The translations under genes and the position numbers were made by a program. Below, in pieces: positions 56,831-64,000 of a DNA stretch of 64,000 nt. The stretch comes from Fretibacterium sp. OH1220_COT-178. Its GTDB lineage: Bacteria > Synergistota > Synergistia > Synergistales > Aminobacteriaceae. Location of the stretch: the NCBI RefSeq assembly GCF_003860125.1, contig NZ_RQYL01000005.1, positions 1 through 64,000 of the forward strand, read 5' to 3'. Below the pieces are notes generated by a model. It was given only the letters and a program-made list of their open reading frames with translations. It ran no database searches and was not told the origin of the DNA. Each line of letters starts with the position of its first letter. The stretch's first letter is position 1.

Positions 56831-58372
56831 ATGGAACGGGAGAGTCGGAATTTGATGACTTTGGATGGGACCAGGAAGCACGCGGACCTCGTCCTGAGAC
56901 GGGGTACCGTGATCGCGATGGACCCGAAGCGGCGCATTCTGGAGAACGCATCCGTGGCCGTGGAGGGAACGCGGATCGCGGCCGTGGGTCCCGCGGAGGA
57001 GATCGAGGCGGCCTACCGGGCCGAGAGGGAGATCGACTGCCTTCACAAGGCGATTCTGCCGGGACTGATCGACGCCCACGGACACGCGGGGCACGCGCTC
57101 CTCAAGACGATCGGTGCGGACACCCGCAGCCATTGGATGCACATCGCGACGCCGACGTACCATCACTACACGACGGACGAATTCTGGTACGTCGAGGCGC
57201 GCCTGGCGGCGCTGGAGCGTTTGAAGATGGGGGTGACCTGCGGAGTCAGCGTCATCAGCTCGGCTCAACGCAGCGACGACCCGATATTTGGAAGCAACAA
57301 CGCACGCGGTTACGCCGACGTGGGCGTTCGGGGGATCGTGGCCGTCGGCCCCTGCAATCCGCCCTTCCCGCGGAAGTTCAGTCGGTGGAGAGACGGCGTC
57401 CGCCACGAGGTGGAGGTCCCCTTCGAGAGGATGATGGAGGGGGCCGAGGCCGTCATCGAGGCTTGGAACGGCGGGGCCGACGGGCGCATTCGGGTCTTCA
57501 TTGCGCCGTTCGTCCTGTTGACCTCGATCTTCGGTTCCGGTCCCTCGGCTGCGGACGTCGCCGTGGCCCTGTCGGATCACGACCGGCTGATGATGCGCCG
57601 GGTCCGGGAGGTTGCGGCCAAGCACGGGGTCCGCATTCACACGGAGGCGTTCGGCGGCATGATCCGTCTCGCGCGGCGCTGCGAGCACGCCCTCCTGGGG
57701 CCGGATGTGCATATCCAGCACTGCACCGGCATCTCCTTCGAGGAGGCCATGATCCTGGCGGAGACGGGGACCCACGTGACCAGCGCGCCCGGCTACGGAC
57801 AGATCAACGGGCGTTGTCCGATCCCCGAGTTGATCGGGCTGGGGGCCAACGTCGCGATCACGACGGACGGGAACTCGCCGTCCACGCCGTTCGACCTCCT
57901 TCAGGCCGCCCGGCAGACCCAGCTGATCCAGCGGATGCTCTGCCGCGACCCCTTCCTGATTCCCAACGGCAAGGCGCTCGAGATGATCACGATCGATGCC
58001 GCCAAGGCGCTGGGCTGGGACGACGAGATCGGCTCGCTCGAGCCGGGGAAGCAGGCGGACATCGCCGTCATCAACCTATGGCAGCCTCACCTGGTCCCCA
58101 ACGTCATGCCGGTGCACCGCGTGATCTGCGAGTCCGTGGGGCACGACGTGGAGACCGTCGTCGTGGCCGGACGCGTGCTGATGGAGGGGCGCCGCGTTCT
58201 GTCCGTGGACGAGGACGAGGTGCTGAGCGAGGGGGAGGCGGAGGCTCGCCGTCTGATCGAGCGCGCCGGATTGGAACGGCACATGGCGTTGCCGAGTACC
58301 TTTTGGGGGCACGCACAGGGCTGGCTGGACGAGCAGCGGGTGGATTACGACTCGCTCCCGAGCCGGCCTTAG
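56831..58372 (+). CDS. ATZ/TRZ-family amidohydrolase (deaminase/chlorohydrolase group)
   Basis: A 513-residue amidohydrolase of the group that includes guanine, adenosylhomocysteine and 5-methylthioadenosine deaminases and atrazine chlorohydrolase. Metal ligands visible are DAHGHAGH (HxH), HTEAFGG, HIQHCTGIS and the aspartate in AITTDGNSPS. The C-terminal LGWDDEIGSLEPGKQADIAVI closes the barrel domain. Next to allantoinases it may remove an amino group from a purine or ureide (inference). A later in-frame ATG (56855) is a possible start. The next reading frame holds a fragment of a related enzyme. Confidence 0.88.
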   Translation: MERESRNLMTLDGTRKHADLVLRRGTVIAMDPKRRILENASVAVEGTRIAAVGPAEEIEAAYRAEREIDCLHKAILPGLIDAHGHAGHALLKTIGADTRSHWMHIATPTYHHYTTDEFWYVEARLAALERLKMGVTCGVSVISSAQRSDDPIFGSNNARGYADVGVRGIVAVGPCNPPFPRKFSRWRDGVRHEVEVPFERMMEGAEAVIEAWNGGADGRIRVFIAPFVLLTSIFGSGPSAADVAVALSDHDRLMMRRVREVAAKHGVRIHTEAFGGMIRLARRCEHALLGPDVHIQHCTGISFEEAMILAETGTHVTSAPGYGQINGRCPIPELIGLGANVAITTDGNSPSTPFDLLQAARQTQLIQRMLCRDPFLIPNGKALEMITIDAAKALGWDDEIGSLEPGKQADIAVINLWQPHLVPNVMPVHRVICESVGHDVETVVVAGRVLMEGRRVLSVDEDEVLSEGEAEARRLIERAGLERHMALPSTFWGHAQGWLDEQRVDYDSLPSRP

Positions 58373-58419
58373 GCGGCTTTCGGGCCCTTGTCGGGAAAGG
58401 AGCGGCTTTCGGAATTGAG

Positions 58420-59211
58420 GACAAAACTGAGCGCAAAGTACATTGTGGCGTTCGTCTGCACGCGGCCCAGGGCTCCTTCGAGTACGGCTGGATCCGTAGG
58501 AAACAAGGGCTCACGCCGCTCCAGTATCTGGACAAGATAGGCTTTCTGGGCCGGACGACGTTGATCCCGCACGCCCTGTACGTTCCGGGATACGGCGACA
58601 TCCAGGATGGGCCTTCGGGCGACGACGTGGCGCTGCTGGCCCGCACGGGGACGACCGTCATCCACTGTCCCCTGGTCTACGCCCGATCGGGGGTGGCGCT
58701 GGAATCGTTTGGGCGCTACCGCAGGGCGGGGGTCAACATGGCGATGGGCACGGACACCTTCCCGCCCGACATGTTGGCGAACATCCGCATTGGCAGCATC
58801 ATGGCGCGCCGCGTCGATCGTTCCCTGGAGGGCAACACCTACGCGGACTTCTTCGAGGCGGCCACCCTGGGGGGCGCGCTGGCTCTGGGCCGCGAGGACC
58901 TGGGCCGCATCGCGGTGGGGGCACGGGCGGACATGATCGTCCTCGACCTCGACGGGCTGGACGTCGGTACGATCGACGACCCGCTGCGGACCATCGTCAA
59001 CTCCGGGACCTCGCGGGAGGTGCGCCATTCGATCATCGATGGCCGCTTCGTGATGCGCGACCGCGTGATCCCGGGCGTCGACGAGGCCGAACTGCGCGAT
59101 CGGGCGCAGGCCTATTACGAGAAGATGCGCATGGGGTACTGGGAGCGGAGCGATGGGTCTTTGCCCCCCGAGCGGCTCTTCCCCGGCTCGTTCCCGGAGG
59201 AGGGACGATAG
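58420..59211 (+). pseudogene. C-terminal remnant of an ATZ/TRZ amidohydrolase
   Basis: About 260 codons match the second half of an amidohydrolase. LHAAQGSFEY at the N-terminal end corresponds to the third metal-ligand region, then TPLQYLDKIGFL and IPHALYV follow. GTDTFPPDM carries the barrel aspartate, and LGREDLGRIAVGARADMIVL marks the end. The first half, including the HxH motif, is missing. There is no ATG, GTG or TTG at a sensible place upstream, though AAAGGAG at about 58395 precedes an ATT. It directly follows an intact paralogue. I infer a decayed or recombined gene copy rather than an active enzyme. Confidence 0.75.
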
Positions 59212-59388: not shown

Positions 59389-60930
59389 TCAGAAGCGAAG
59401 AGGGCCGGCAAACGCTTCCGCCCTGTCGAGGATCGTCCCGTCCCGTATCAGTGCGGCGATGTACTCCATGTCCTCGTGCATGGCGCGATCCTTCGTCAGG
59501 AAGGGCACCTTCTCGCGCACGAGATCCCGTACGGCCTTGGTCGCGGGGGAAGGGTTCGGGTCGTCGTAAAAATCCTGTGCCTGGCAGGCGTTCATCAGTT
59601 CGATGGCCAGGATGTACCGTGCGAGCCCGACGCTTTCGTAGGCTTTGATGGCGGCGTTGTATCCCATGGAAACGTAATCTTCCTGAAGGGCGCAGGTCGG
59701 CACGCTGTCCACGGTCGCGGGGTGGGCCTTCAGTCGTATTTCTCCGAGCAGCCCGGCCGCCGTGTACTGGGGAATCATGTAGCCGTTGCTTATGCCGGGG
59801 GTGGGGGTCAGAAAGGCCGGAAGTTCGCTGACGTGCTGATTGACCAGCCGGTCCAGCCTGCGTTCCGACATCTTGGCCAGATTGCCCATCGCGATGCAAA
59901 GGACATCCGCGGCGGTTCCCGCATAGGCTCCGTCGCAGTTGCACCCCATCAAAGCCGTTCCGGCACCGTCCTCCGTCTCGAAAATCTGCGGGTTGTCCAC
60001 CGTGGAGTTCAGTTCGATCTCCAGCGTTTCCACGCTGTCGCCGATCAGTTTGCGGACCGCGCCATGGAGTTGGGGGATGCAGCGCAGGGAGAGGGCATCC
60101 TGAACCCTGTAACCAGCGTATTTTTTTTGTATCCCGCTCCCCTCCAGGACCTTCCGGACGTTCGCGGCGGCGGCTCCCTGGTTGGGGTGCGGCCTGGTCC
60201 CCATGAGCATTTCATGCATCGCGCCCAGGTTGCCTTTCAGTCCCTCGAGGGACATGGCCCCGATCACATCGCTCGTCAGGGCGAGGATGGAGGCGTCGTA
60301 AGCGGCCAATGCGGACAGCGCGGTGACCGAAGTGGTCCCCGATACCAGGCTCAGCCCCTCCTTGGCTCCGATGTCGATGGGTTGGATTCCGGCCTGCACG
60401 AGCGCGTCGCCGCCCCGAAGTCGTTTCCCTCTGTACCAGGCGCTGCCCTCGCCGATCAGGACGAGAGCGATGTGCCCTTCCAACCCGAGATACCCGACCG
60501 AACCGTGCCCCGGGACATGGGGCACAATGTCGGCATTGAGCATGCGCCTCAAAACCTCCACGGTCTCCAAACGTATTCCGGTATGCCCCGTTCCCAAATG
60601 TTGAAGCAGAACCAACATCATGGCCCGGACGCACTCTTTTTCGAGCGGTTCTCCCACGGACACCGCGTGGGACAAAATGGTGTCGCGCTGAAAACGAGCG
60701 CGCTCTTCCCTACTCACATAGTGATTGACATTATCGCCAAGCCCGGTGGTGACGCCATAGACCACTCGTTCCTCGTCGGAGAAGCGCTCCACCAACCTGC
60801 GGCAGGCAGAGACCCTTTCTTTGTATTCCGGGGAGAATTCGACGTGCGCTCCGCAGCGGGCCACCGCCACAACGTCCGAAAGCGCCAGCCGATCTCCCAG
60901 CGTGACCGTCCCGATCTCTCCCGCCCGCAT
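59389..60930 (-). CDS. HAL/PAL-family ammonia-lyase homologue lacking the MIO triad
   Basis: A 513-residue aromatic amino acid lyase-fold protein. Family features are Y58 in VVYGVTTGLGDN, KEGLSLVSGTTSVTA, RVQDALSLRCIPQLHGA (Q277, R283), NSTVDNPQ and LQEDYVSMG (E417). The segment that makes the MIO electrophile (GSVG-ASG-DLAPLAH in HAL) reads GSVGYLGLEGHIALVL (residues 143-158) and has no Ala-Ser-Gly. The HAL Asn195 position is S197 and Tyr280 is L280. It therefore cannot deaminate by the known route. I chose the ATG at 60930 (GAAAGGGG upstream) over 60978. It is the first recognised family of a leftward group; its substrate is unknown. Confidence 0.85.
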   Translation of the reverse strand: MRAGEIGTVTLGDRLALSDVVAVARCGAHVEFSPEYKERVSACRRLVERFSDEERVVYGVTTGLGDNVNHYVSREERARFQRDTILSHAVSVGEPLEKECVRAMMLVLLQHLGTGHTGIRLETVEVLRRMLNADIVPHVPGHGSVGYLGLEGHIALVLIGEGSAWYRGKRLRGGDALVQAGIQPIDIGAKEGLSLVSGTTSVTALSALAAYDASILALTSDVIGAMSLEGLKGNLGAMHEMLMGTRPHPNQGAAAANVRKVLEGSGIQKKYAGYRVQDALSLRCIPQLHGAVRKLIGDSVETLEIELNSTVDNPQIFETEDGAGTALMGCNCDGAYAGTAADVLCIAMGNLAKMSERRLDRLVNQHVSELPAFLTPTPGISNGYMIPQYTAAGLLGEIRLKAHPATVDSVPTCALQEDYVSMGYNAAIKAYESVGLARYILAIELMNACQAQDFYDDPNPSPATKAVRDLVREKVPFLTKDRAMHEDMEYIAALIRDGTILDRAEAFAGPLRF

Positions 60931-61065
60931 TTTCGTCCCCTTTCGTTCGATGCCGAATCGTGCTCGATGAATCTTCAATCCTCAGAAACAAGGCCATGGG
61001 CTCCATTCGGCGATCTTTCCAGGCTCACGCCAAACCTCCGGTGCCGGTGCCGTGGGGCATAGGGC

Positions 61066-62028
61066 CTATTGGGCCTTGACGATGGATATCGCGCCCTTGG
61101 GGCAATTGTTCATGCAAATGGTGCAGCCCCAGCATTTTTCCCGATCGAAGGAGATCCTTTTTTCGGCATCCTGGGTGAAGGCGCCGAAATTGCATATCCT
61201 GGCGCATTTTCCACAGCGGATGCAGGCTTCTTCATCCCAGACGATGTCGTAGATCTTTTTGGGCCAAAGCCCCTTCGCTCCGATCTGCTGCGAGGAACGA
61301 ATCGGGTAACAACAGCATCCGCAACAGTTGCAGATGCCCCACTCGGTCTCCGTGGTCTGCATCAGTCCGTTTTTATTGGCCATGCGCACCAAGGCCTTGG
61401 CCTCTTCCTTCGTGATGAGCTTGCCGTGCCCCCTGTCGTAATCCGAATTGATCGATTTGTAATGGAAGCCGAGGCAAACATTCGACGGTTTCCTGCCCTC
61501 GCACTTCAAAGCAAGGGCCTTGCAGTTGCAGGGAAAAACGCAGAACTCCTCCTGCTCCTGCCGATCGATCAGGGCCAGGGTCTCCTCGAGCGTGTAGAAA
61601 AAAGCATTTTCTATGAGCTTCGAGGGATTGCGCAGGGATTCCTCGAGTCGGGGCTTTGCCTCCTCCGCGTACTTGTTCACGTACCAGACATCGATTTTTT
61701 CCCGGACCTCCGCAGGAATTTTTTTCCAGGCTTCCGGATCGTATTGAGCCAGGTAGGTGATGCATTTGGCGAAGGTGCCCACCTTGTAGCCGATCTCTCC
61801 CAGTTCCGCGGTCTTGTTGAATATTCCCCGGGAATAGGCGTCCTGGGTGTAGGCCTGGGGATCTTCGACAATGGGCTTCAGGAGACGGAACAGGTCCTCG
61901 GGCAGATAGCTCCCGGCCCCCATGAGCTCGATGGCCTTGACATCGGTATCCGTCAGGTAAACCTCTATGAACGGGCGGGCCTCCTCCGGAATCTCGAAAG
62001 TTTCGACGATCGTTTCCCAGATCTTCAT
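61066..62028 (-). CDS. Cysteine-rich ferredoxin-like protein
   Basis: A 320-residue protein. The C-terminus carries two [4Fe-4S] motifs, C269-x2-C-x2-C-x3-C279 and C299-x2-C-x2-C-x3-C309. Upstream lie FPCNCKALALKC with C185 and an unusual CNCCGCCC run (residues 233-240), which could bind a further cluster or metal. Residues 1-160 are helical and charged, with no clear family. It probably passes electrons to or from a neighbouring enzyme. The ATG at 62028 has AGGGAGGAG 8 nt upstream; a longer start is open to 62115. The lyase-like gene follows 135 bp later. Confidence 0.82.
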   Translation of the reverse strand: MKIWETIVETFEIPEEARPFIEVYLTDTDVKAIELMGAGSYLPEDLFRLLKPIVEDPQAYTQDAYSRGIFNKTAELGEIGYKVGTFAKCITYLAQYDPEAWKKIPAEVREKIDVWYVNKYAEEAKPRLEESLRNPSKLIENAFFYTLEETLALIDRQEQEEFCVFPCNCKALALKCEGRKPSNVCLGFHYKSINSDYDRGHGKLITKEEAKALVRMANKNGLMQTTETEWGICNCCGCCCYPIRSSQQIGAKGLWPKKIYDIVWDEEACIRCGKCARICNFGAFTQDAEKRISFDREKCWGCTICMNNCPKGAISIVKAQ

Positions 62029-62206: not shown

Positions 62207-62755
62207 TCAGAAGGTGCGCTTCACGGTGCACCCGTCCGCAGGAAAGGGGATGTACCGGACTTTGGCCCCCTCGCGAAGTTCTCCGTAAAAGGCGACATGA
62301 TAAGGCCTGAATACGCTCTCGATACTCTCCACCTCCAGGGTGATGTGTCCGCCGATCCGCCTTTTCAGGATCCTTCTGGCCAAAGCATTGCCCCGGACGG
62401 CCAGAGCCGAGTCCGAAAAATCCGAAAGCTGGATCTGTTCCTCGTCGACATCCATGTCGGTTATCTCCACCCCTTGGGGATCGTAATAGGAGACCCCGCA
62501 AGTGGAGCCGTTGGCGATCATCTGAATCAGAAAGTCGGAGTGCCGACCGGACTCCGACCTGCGTACGATTCGGGAGATCCAGTTGGGTGCGGACGAAACT
62601 CTGTACGTGATGATCTTGTTCTCGATATAGATCGTCTTCATGTGGACCGCGACGTCTTTCCCGAGGAAAAGACGCCCGAAGAAGCCGTTGCCCCTGCTCG
62701 CTTTCTTTTGTGCCTCTTCCAGGCTCAGCTTTTCTGCGAACGCTCGAATTTTCAT
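62207..62755 (-). CDS. Protein of unknown function, 182 residues
   Basis: I do not recognise the family. The protein starts MKIRAFAEKLSLEEAQKKA, has a basic GFFGRLFLGKD segment and a probable beta-rich middle (TIYIENKIITYRVSS). It contains SESGRHSDFLIQMIANGSTCGVSYYD and an acidic DMDVDEEQIQLSDFSD. No signal peptide or membrane segment is seen. GGAG lies 7 nt before the chosen ATG; an in-frame start 30 bp upstream is possible. It lies between the Fe-S gene and the symporter on the same strand, with a long inverted repeat just upstream. Confidence 0.65.
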   Translation of the reverse strand: MKIRAFAEKLSLEEAQKKASRGNGFFGRLFLGKDVAVHMKTIYIENKIITYRVSSAPNWISRIVRRSESGRHSDFLIQMIANGSTCGVSYYDPQGVEITDMDVDEEQIQLSDFSDSALAVRGNALARRILKRRIGGHITLEVESIESVFRPYHVAFYGELREGAKVRYIPFPADGCTVKRTF

Positions 62756-62788
62756 CTTGGTCTCCACAGTCCCGTTCGAAAGCATGAA

Positions 62789-62861: not shown

Positions 62862-63119
62862 TTACCTGGATGCGCTCTTCCGGGTTTGGCGGGAGAAGGA
62901 AAAGACCTCCAGGATGTATTTCAGAAAGATCATTGTGGTCACGCCCAACGTAAAATAAGGGGCCACGGTTCCGATCATGAAATCGACGTCGTACAGCAGG
63001 CAGTACCCGAAGACGAGGGCTTCGACGAAGTAGAGCAATACCAGAAAACCGTCCAGGCCGGACCATTGGATTTTCTCGTCGCCGACAGAGGGGGTCGTAT
63101 TGAGTTTTTCGTCCTGCAT
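62862..63119 (-). CDS. Small two-helix membrane protein next to a symporter
   Basis: An 85-residue protein with a polar N-terminus (MQDEKLNTTPSVGDE) and two hydrophobic segments (about residues 24-44, FLVLLYFVEALVFGYCLLY, and 48-68, FMIGTVAPYFTLGVTTMIF), then a basic tail. Its gene starts 6 bp after the stop of the sodium:solute symporter gene and has GGAGG before the ATG. Several SSS carriers are paired with a small two-helix subunit (for example DUF485, DUF997 and DUF4212). I cannot say it belongs to any of these, but the role may be similar. Confidence 0.72.
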   Translation of the reverse strand: MQDEKLNTTPSVGDEKIQWSGLDGFLVLLYFVEALVFGYCLLYDVDFMIGTVAPYFTLGVTTMIFLKYILEVFSFSRQTRKSASR

Positions 63120-63124
63120 TGTCG

Positions 63125-64000
63125 TCAGCCTCCTATAATGATGTTCCTGCGATCGCTGATATCCGTGCCGAATCGATTGCCGACAAACCAGGCGAGGAAG
63201 GAAACCGGAATCGCCGCCAGCAGTGGCTCGAGCGTTCCCAGGCCCCCAGGAAGCGGGATGGGATGCTGCCTGATGACGATAAACGTCAGGCACCCCAGGA
63301 CGAGGGAGCATCTTCCGGACCACACCGTCTTTTTCCCCTTGTACATGATGGCCATGAGGACGGGTACGAAGGCGGTGGACATCCAAAGGCTGGAGAGGAA
63401 CACGACGGCGTCGAAGACCATCTTGAACCGGAAGGCGAGGGTCAACCCCATCCCTCCGAGGAGCAGGGCTCCGATGCGGCTCAGGGTTATCAGTTTCTTG
63501 TCGTCCACGTCTTTTCTGAAGAATATTCTGCCATAGATATCCTTCGCGAGCGTCGTCCCGCCGATCAGGTAGTAACTGTCGAGGGTCGAGATGACGGCGC
63601 CGAACAAGCCTATGATGAAGAGTGCGCGGACGCCTTGGGGGAGTTTGGACAGGACCATGTGGACGTAGGCGACCTCGGGGATGGCGTCCGGGTGAAGAAC
63701 CCTGGTGATGACGCCGCACATGATGGCGACGAGGTCGAAGCCCAGCCATATGACGAAGCAGGTCAGCATGGCGCGGCGGCCCGTCCTGGCCGAATTGGAG
63801 GCGGAAAATCTTTGATAGAAGCTGGGGTCGGCATAGACGTTCAGACAAAGTCCGAGCAGCATGGCCGCTTTTGTGAAGGGCATGCCCGCTATGGGATGCA
63901 CCAGTTCGGGCTTTGAGGCCAGTGCCGTCCGAATGCCCTGCATGCCGCCGGCATCGGAAAAAATCTGGGGAAAGACGACGCAAACGCTGAATACCATGAG
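63125..64000 (-). CDS. Sodium:solute symporter (SSS family), partial
   Basis: At least 290 residues of the C-terminal part of an SSS carrier; the start lies beyond the window. Family marks are NVYADPSFYQRFSASNS, which is the helix with ARTGRRAM, then IIGLFGAVISTLDSYYLIGGTTLAKDIY with the Na+-site serines, and seven or more hydrophobic helices. It brings in a solute with Na+. The carried solute may be the substrate of the MIO-less lyase encoded downstream (inference). Confidence 0.87.
   Translation of the reverse strand, partial: LMVFSVCVVFPQIFSDAGGMQGIRTALASKPELVHPIAGMPFTKAAMLLGLCLNVYADPSFYQRFSASNSARTGRRAMLTCFVIWLGFDLVAIMCGVITRVLHPDAIPEVAYVHMVLSKLPQGVRALFIIGLFGAVISTLDSYYLIGGTTLAKDIYGRIFFRKDVDDKKLITLSRIGALLLGGMGLTLAFRFKMVFDAVVFLSSLWMSTAFVPVLMAIMYKGKKTVWSGRCSLVLGCLTFIVIRQHPIPLPGGLGTLEPLLAAIPVSFLAWFVGNRFGTDISDRRNIIIGG

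What the first reader, a model, noticed from the sequence alone, without database searches (positions are those of the whole stretch)
59389..60930. Ammonia-lyase homologue that cannot form the MIO cofactor
The protein keeps the histidine/phenylalanine ammonia-lyase fold markers (YGVTTG, VQD-SLRC-PQ, QEDYVSM). The Ala-Ser-Gly triad that cyclises to MIO is absent; the site reads GSVGYLGLEGH, about three residues shorter. The HAL Asn195 and Tyr280 equivalents are S197 and L280. All three changes hit the same chemistry, so this is not a random loss. The reading frame is intact and the rest is conserved, which argues for a new MIO-free reaction or a binding function. I know of no described role for such a variant.
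Basis: partly seen in the sequence, partly recalled or inferred. Interest (0 to 1): 0.8.

Follow-up and report, generated by a model that had tools for sequence, protein, structure and literature searches.

The report
MIO-free histidine-betaine lyase, misnamed histidase
This gene belongs to a widespread but undescribed group of bacterial enzymes that look like histidine ammonia-lyase but have lost its built-in cofactor, and the gene neighbourhoods suggest that they split trimethylamine off a methylated form of histidine (hercynine) rather than ammonia off histidine.

Summary
The gene (59389-60930, minus, 513 aa) is an intact PF00221 protein whose MIO-forming Ala-Ser-Gly is replaced by a loop three residues shorter (GSVGY---LGLEGH). 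It is no sequencing error: 37 relatives from several phyla share it and form one clade (support 100/100), with four invariant residues of their own (Y147, E151, D333, N67). S197 and L280 are not clade-wide. The query is not an ergothionase; it belongs to a second MIO-free clade ("YL").

Context indicates the reaction. Several YL lyases fill the HutH slot beside a true urocanate hydratase (Paenibacillus, Fictibacillus, Klebsiella plasmids). Ergothionase-type lyases, even in the same genome, sit beside thiourocanate hydratase instead. Betaine transporters adjoin YL and ergothionase-type genes but none of 41 canonical HutH genes in the same genomes. I infer hercynine -> urocanate + trimethylamine: a quaternary amine leaves without MIO. 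The query closes a nine-gene run, reaching beyond the window, that starts with an ergothionase-type lyase; its own substrate is less certain. No function is tested. New variant of a known kind.

The parts
59389..60930 (-). YL-type MIO-free PF00221 lyase, 513 aa (the finding); possible upstream TTG start at 60978
   Evidence: AlphaFold2 mean pLDDT 92.3, pTM 0.93; closest PDB folds are HALs, TM about 0.90
60484..60504 (-). Shortened former MIO loop GSVGYLG (residues 143-149); Y147 replaces Ala142 of Ala-Ser-Gly; S143, G144 and D145 are deleted
60478..60480 (-). E151 codon, invariant in 37/37 YL members (Leu149 in HAL)
59932..59934 (-). D333 codon, invariant in 37/37 YL members (His330 in HAL, Glu327 in ergothionase 6S7J)
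60730..60732 (-). N67 codon, invariant in 37/37 YL members (Leu62 in P. putida HAL, Asn62 in ergothionase 6S7J)
61066..62028 (-). Fe-S protein with a C-terminal 4Fe-4S dicluster, upstream gene of the same run; found only in YL-bearing genomes among 41 relatives (alternative start 62052)
62207..62785 (-). Conserved protein of unknown family (cluster c11), 192 aa, next to YL lyases in five other genomes
62862..63119 (-). Small membrane protein, 85 aa, directly after the symporter gene
63125..64000 (-). SSS-family Na+/solute symporter, C-terminal part; the gene continues to contig position 64546. The run then goes on outside the window: Mo-hydroxylase subunits at 64632-66929, 66898-67764 and 67734-68237, then an ergothionase-type lyase at 68234-69835

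Best explanation
The protein is a MIO-free trimethylamine-lyase for a histidine-type betaine, most likely hercynine (Na,Na,Na-trimethyl-L-histidine): hercynine -> trans-urocanate + trimethylamine. In histidase, MIO makes an ordinary amino group a good leaving group; a quaternary trimethylammonium is already one, so the cofactor is dispensable. Proposed mechanism (inferred): His88 and Glu417, the equivalents of HAL His83 and Glu414, hold the imidazole; Arg283 binds the carboxylate; Tyr58, the equivalent of the essential HAL Tyr53, takes the beta-proton; and the pocket vacated by MIO, with invariant Tyr147, Glu151 and Asp333, receives and stabilises the trimethylammonium group. Shown here: loop loss, clade, conserved residues, fold and gene neighbourhoods. 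Inferred: substrate, product and catalytic roles. For the hut-linked sister branch, urocanate as product is strongly indicated. The query lies in another branch (subclade A: L280, Ala/Cys at HAL F329, Tyr at HAL H416), so it may use hercynine or a close ring-modified imidazole betaine.
For: (1) Clade of 37 with the shortened loop and four invariant new residues, while the imidazole, carboxylate and base residues are kept. (2) YL lyase in the HutH slot: MFS-lyase-AraC-(hutG)-hutU-hutI in Paenibacillus; hut genes also adjoin it in Fictibacillus and a Lachnospiraceae. Of the genomes searched, G054, G056 and G057 have a single urocanase, in that operon; P. alginolyticus (G054) has no other PF00221 gene. 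(3) A second YL branch lies in a Klebsiella plasmid hut cluster with a ProV/OsmF-type ABC transporter; K. pneumoniae has its own chromosomal hutUH (PMC12188710). (4) Paired control: YL operons carry urocanate hydratase (990-1020 bits to TIGR01228, 694-718 to thiourocanate hydratase, cutoff 930; the divergent Lachnospiraceae one also fits hutU best), ergothionase-type operons carry thiourocanate hydratase (1007-1022 bits); in G053 both occur in one genome. (5) BCCT betaine transporter within 1 kb of 5/38 YL and 3/10 ergothionase-type genes, 0/41 canonical HAL; MttB-superfamily genes beside two YL loci. (6) In the own genome an ergothionase-type lyase heads the same gene run. (7) Precedent: ergothionase is MIO-free and releases trimethylamine.
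Against: No activity data. Most YL loci have no urocanase nearby, and the query itself has neither hutU nor BCCT next to it. The query's subclade differs from the hut-linked branch near the active site (HAL F329, H416, mostly N195). Tandem A and B copies in four genomes suggest two substrates. The MttB neighbours fall below the TMA-methyltransferase cutoff and lack an internal pyrrolysine codon, so they do not prove that TMA is made. Bacillus operons carry an N-methyl-amino-acid oxidase (SolA-like), which could point to less-methylated histidines.
Confidence: 0.62

Rival explanations
1. It is an ordinary histidine ammonia-lyase that deaminates histidine without MIO; the YL loop is a tolerated variant.
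For: It sits in the HutH slot of hut operons, P. alginolyticus has no other PF00221 gene, and the imidazole-binding residues are kept. Automatic models call some members HutH: L022 exceeds both HutH cut-offs.
Against: Removing MIO by a Ser-to-Ala change abolishes activity in a characterised relative, RxPAL S153A (PMC3903478). Nearly all genomes searched also carry a canonical ASG HutH or several PF00221 genes. Betaine transporters, not histidine transporters, accompany the YL lyases. Asp replaces the HutH-invariant His330 in 37/37 members.
Confidence: 0.1
2. It is an ergothionase (ergothioneine -> thiourocanate + trimethylamine) with a different loop.
For: MIO-free, Asn at HAL 62, an acidic residue at HAL 330, Ser at 195 and Leu at 280, as in 6S7J. 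The query shares a gene run with an ergothionase-type paralogue. YL plus ergothionase as one clade is not rejected (p-AU 0.30-0.38).
Against: Separate, fully supported clades. The query scores 196 bits to 6S7J against 323 to a HAL, while the genome has its own sister of 6S7J (C13 copy). YL operons carry urocanate hydratase and ergothionase-type operons carry thiourocanate hydratase. Loops differ (Y---L against E-[GA]D).
Confidence: 0.12
3. It is a MIO-free lyase for a different imidazole or aromatic betaine (ring-modified hercynine, S-methyl-ergothioneine, another amino-acid betaine), or for partly methylated histidine.
For: The query's subclade has Ala/Cys at HAL F329 and Tyr at H416. A Mo-hydroxylase adjoins it here and in L008. 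A rhizobial YL branch sits in an operon with CoA-transferase, enoyl-CoA hydratase and hydroxyacyl-CoA dehydrogenase, so other substrates exist. SolA-like oxidases occur in Bacillus operons.
Against: His88 and Glu417, the imidazole binders, are invariant in the query's subclade too, and the Klebsiella member of the other YL branch is hut-linked.
Confidence: 0.28
4. It is a catalytically dead binding or regulatory protein.
For: MIO, N195 and Y280 are changed.
Against: The catalytic base, carboxylate and imidazole residues are invariant over a deep clade, tandem copies are kept, and it is the only lyase in some catabolic operons.
Confidence: 0.03

Closest known systems
Ergothionase (ergothioneine trimethylamine-lyase), T. 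denticola 6S7J/6S7Q; Maurer et al. 2019 (cited in PMC13405746)
   Same: PF00221 fold, no MIO, Asn at HAL 62, acidic residue at HAL 330, Ser at 195, Leu at 280; betaine transporter often adjacent; predicted leaving group trimethylamine
   Different: Separate clade; loop E-[GA]D-I with one deletion instead of Y---L with three; thiourocanate hydratase instead of urocanate hydratase in the operons; about 30% identity to the query
Histidine ammonia-lyase HutH (EC 4.3.1.3), e.g. P. putida 1B8F
   Same: Fold (TM about 0.91), Y53, H83, R283, E414 equivalents; same operon slot in the hut-linked members; urocanate as predicted product
   Different: No Ala-Ser-Gly and so no MIO; His330 becomes Asp, Leu149 becomes Glu; betaine-type rather than histidine transport
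MIO-dependent aromatic ammonia-lyases and aminomutases (PAL, TAL, TAM)
   Same: PF00221 fold
   Different: They keep the MIO triad; lower similarity

Membership tests
Histidine ammonia-lyase (HutH) | PF00221 domain and HAL fold | tested here: met
   E 9e-160; TM about 0.90 to HAL structures
Histidine ammonia-lyase (HutH) | Ala/Ser/Cys-Ser-Gly triad that cyclises to MIO | tested here: not met
   Y147 plus a 3-residue deletion, in 37/37 clade members; triad present in 41/41 HALs compared
Histidine ammonia-lyase (HutH) | NCBIfam hutH equivalog cut-off (TIGR01225, 539 bits) | tested here: not met
   491 bits for the query (hut-linked relative L022 passes at 546)
Histidine ammonia-lyase (HutH) | Asn195 and Tyr280 | tested here: not met
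   S197 and L280
Histidine ammonia-lyase (HutH) | Deaminates L-histidine to urocanate | not testable with these tools
   needs purified protein
Ergothionase | MIO-free PF00221 protein | tested here: met
   MIO-free nature of ergothionase from PMC13405746
Ergothionase | Falls in the clade of 6S7J | tested here: not met
   ergothionase clade 100/100, YL clade 100/100, HALs in between; a joint origin of the two is not rejected (p-AU 0.30)
Ergothionase | E-[GA]D-I loop | tested here: not met
Ergothionase | Thiourocanate hydratase in the operon | tested here: not met
   hutU instead in hut-linked YL operons; the query's own run has no hydratase at all
Ergothionase | Releases trimethylamine from ergothioneine | not testable with these tools
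   needs enzyme assay
YL clade (proposed MIO-free histidine-betaine lyases) | Shortened Y---L loop with invariant N67, Y147, E151, D333 | tested here: met
   37/37 including the query
YL clade (proposed MIO-free histidine-betaine lyases) | Betaine transporter or urocanate hydratase adjacent | tested here: inconclusive
   met for several clade members; for the query only an SSS symporter and an ergothionase-type lyase in the same run

The most novel reading that the evidence does not exclude
The YL clade is a second MIO-free lineage of betaine lyases that arose from histidase independently of ergothionase. It opens an undescribed hercynine catabolic route and an overlooked bacterial source of trimethylamine, mislabelled HutH in public genomes. 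The query's subclade, with its Mo-hydroxylase, Fe-S protein and paired ergothionase-type lyase, handles a further, unknown imidazole betaine.
Probability: 0.35. Interest if true: 0.75.

Novelty: new variant of a known kind. Interest (0 to 1): 0.62.

Why it matters
Hercynine is the precursor of the antioxidant ergothioneine, and I found no described catabolic enzyme for it in the papers I could search. If the prediction holds, a large set of genes annotated as histidine ammonia-lyase or aromatic amino acid ammonia-lyase, including a copy in 203 Klebsiella, Raoultella and Escherichia plasmid records, are trimethylamine-producing enzymes. It would also show that losing MIO in this superfamily goes with a change of leaving group from ammonia to trimethylamine, perhaps twice, which makes the question of what MIO is for directly testable.

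Tried and rejected
Sequencing or assembly error: rejected, the loop is shared by all relatives in the clade. Query as ergothionase: rejected as membership by tree, loop and operon partner, although a single origin of the two MIO-free clades cannot be excluded. 'All three changes hit the same chemistry': the S197 and L280 part does not hold for the whole clade. MttB neighbours as proof of trimethylamine: weakened, they lack an internal pyrrolysine codon and fall below the TMA-methyltransferase cut-off. Function of the Fe-S neighbour from PDB or NCBIfam: only generic ferredoxin matches. Literature: Maurer 2019 is not held; no paper in the library names a hercynine lyase, but subscription papers are not in it.

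Full report
WHAT IS THERE. The ORF on the minus strand at 59389-60930 (513 aa; an upstream TTG would extend it to 60978) is intact and matches PF00221 over the whole profile. Aligned with P. putida histidase, the Ala142-Ser143-Gly144-Asp145 stretch is replaced by Tyr147 followed by a three-residue gap: GSVGY---LGLEGH (DNA 60484-60504). MIO cannot form. AlphaFold2 gives a confident HAL fold (mean pLDDT 92.3, pTM 0.93), with HAL structures as the closest solved folds (TM about 0.90) and ergothionase 6S7J close behind.

NOT CHANCE, NOT AN ERROR. A scan of bacterial and archaeal genomes found 31 loci encoding relatives of up to 59% identity in Bacillus, Paenibacillus, Clostridium, Lachnospiraceae, Mycobacterium, Prescottella, Calditrichota, Neomarinimicrobiota and a Bacteroidetes MAG; seven more came from genomes related to the window's own. 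Every full-length YL member has the same shortened loop. With the loop columns removed, 37 members form one clade with SH-aLRT 100, and 100/100 in the careful trees of a subset. Four positions are invariant in the clade and differ from histidase: Y147 (Ala142), E151 (Leu149), D333 (His330), N67 (Leu/Phe62). Y58 (Y53), H88 (H83), R283 and E417 (E414) are kept. S197 and L280 vary within the clade (N25/S12; L26/Y7/H2/I2).

The window's genome has six PF00221 genes: one canonical HutH, the query, and four with an E-[GA]D loop. One of those four groups with T. denticola ergothionase (6S7J) at 100/99. Ergothionase is an MIO-free enzyme that eliminates trimethylamine from ergothioneine (PMC13405746). 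Ergothionase also has Asn at HAL 62, an acid at HAL 330, Ser at 195 and Leu at 280. But the query is not in that clade and scores better against HALs than against 6S7J (323 vs 196 bits). In the best tree histidases lie between the two MIO-free clades; one common origin is not rejected (p-AU 0.30-0.38).

WHAT THE NEIGHBOURHOODS SAY. In Paenibacillus (L019, L020, L022, L034) the order is MFS transporter - YL lyase - AraC regulator - (hutG) - hutU - hutI, with hut genes also near the YL lyase in Fictibacillus (L023) and a Lachnospiraceae (L030). G054, G056 and G057 have a single urocanase, in this operon. P. alginolyticus (G054) has no other PF00221 gene. A second YL branch (joined to the first at 98/97.5) sits in a Klebsiella pneumoniae plasmid between a ProV/OsmF-type ABC transporter and hutD/hutC/hutF, with hutU upstream, although K. 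pneumoniae has its own chromosomal hutUH (PMC12188710). The lyases in the HutH slot therefore most likely make urocanate.

PAIRED CONTROL. The hydratases next to YL lyases score 990-1020 bits on hutU and only 694-718 on thiourocanate hydratase (cut-off 930); the more divergent Lachnospiraceae one also fits hutU best (446 vs 308). Those next to ergothionase-type lyases score 1007-1022 on thiourocanate hydratase and 708-733 on hutU; in Paenibacillus agri (G053) both kinds of operon are present. YL enzymes thus look like the sulfur-free counterpart of ergothionase, and ergothioneine without its sulfur is hercynine.

BETAINE CONTEXT. BCCT betaine transporters lie within 1 kb of 5 of 38 YL genes and 3 of 10 ergothionase-type genes, but of none of 41 canonical HutH genes in the same genomes. 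MttB-superfamily methyltransferases without an internal pyrrolysine codon adjoin two YL loci. A Rhizobium/Agrobacterium YL branch pairs a ProV/OsmF transporter with a CoA-dependent acrylate route, so the MIO-free YL chemistry may extend to other betaines.

THE QUERY'S OWN GENE RUN. On contig C5 the query is the last of nine tightly spaced minus-strand genes: ergothionase-type lyase (68234-69835), three Mo-hydroxylase subunits, SSS symporter, small membrane protein, conserved protein c11, Fe-S protein, YL lyase; a GntR-type regulator of cluster c12 lies beside the run and beside YL loci of relatives. The Fe-S gene occurs in 5 of 41 related genomes, all five among the eight with a YL lyase. The query is in subclade A, which has Leu280, Ala/Cys at HAL F329 and Tyr at HAL H416, and A and B copies occur side by side in L007, L008, L018 and L031. 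Its substrate may therefore be hercynine or a ring-modified relative.

MECHANISM (INFERRED). MIO turns NH3 into a leaving group (established knowledge of the family). Trimethylammonium needs no such help. H88 and E417 would hold the imidazole, R283 the carboxylate, Y58 would remove the beta-proton, and Y147, E151 and D333 in the vacated MIO pocket would receive the cation by cation-pi and charge contacts. None of this was tested experimentally, and the geometry could not be measured with the tools available.

VERDICT. Likely function: hercynine (histidine-betaine) trimethylamine-lyase, about 0.62 for the query and higher for hut-linked members.

Noticed in passing
L132 6980-8512 (K. pneumoniae plasmid p5921_tmexCD): A YL-type lyase annotated 'aromatic amino acid ammonia-lyase' lies in a plasmid hut cluster with a betaine-type ABC transporter; 203 plasmid records hold it at 90% identity or more (191 Klebsiella, 10 Raoultella, 2 Escherichia).
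   Followed up: partly
L131 2453-10445 and L130 2503-10430 (Rhizobium, Agrobacterium plasmids): ProV/OsmF-type ABC transporter, YL-type MIO-free lyase, CoA-transferase, hydroxyacyl-CoA dehydrogenase and enoyl-CoA hydratase: looks like a catabolic route for another aromatic betaine.
   Followed up: partly
G000 C5:68234-69835, C13:41741-43111, C22:7000-8382, C37:13599-14984: Four ergothionase-type paralogues in one 2.9-Mb genome, one with BCCT adjacent and two next to Mo-hydroxylase genes.
   Followed up: partly
L095 2990-4384 (Mycobacterium sp. AZCC_0083): A further PF00221 protein without the ASG triad (YASIGTGDLAAL), very long branch; not followed up.
   Followed up: no
L010, L012-L016, L019, L021, L023, L037: SolA-like N-methyl-amino-acid oxidase (PRK11259 passes its cut-off in L019) near the YL lyase; role unexplained.
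   Followed up: no
window 58380-59211 (+): An amidohydrolase-like reading frame that seems to lack its N-terminal part, downstream of the intact amidohydrolase 56831-58372; possibly truncated or frameshifted.
   Followed up: no
L022 7986-9572: This MIO-free protein passes the NCBIfam cut-offs for histidine ammonia-lyase (571 vs 524; 546 vs 539), so automatic annotation would call such genes HutH.
   Followed up: yes
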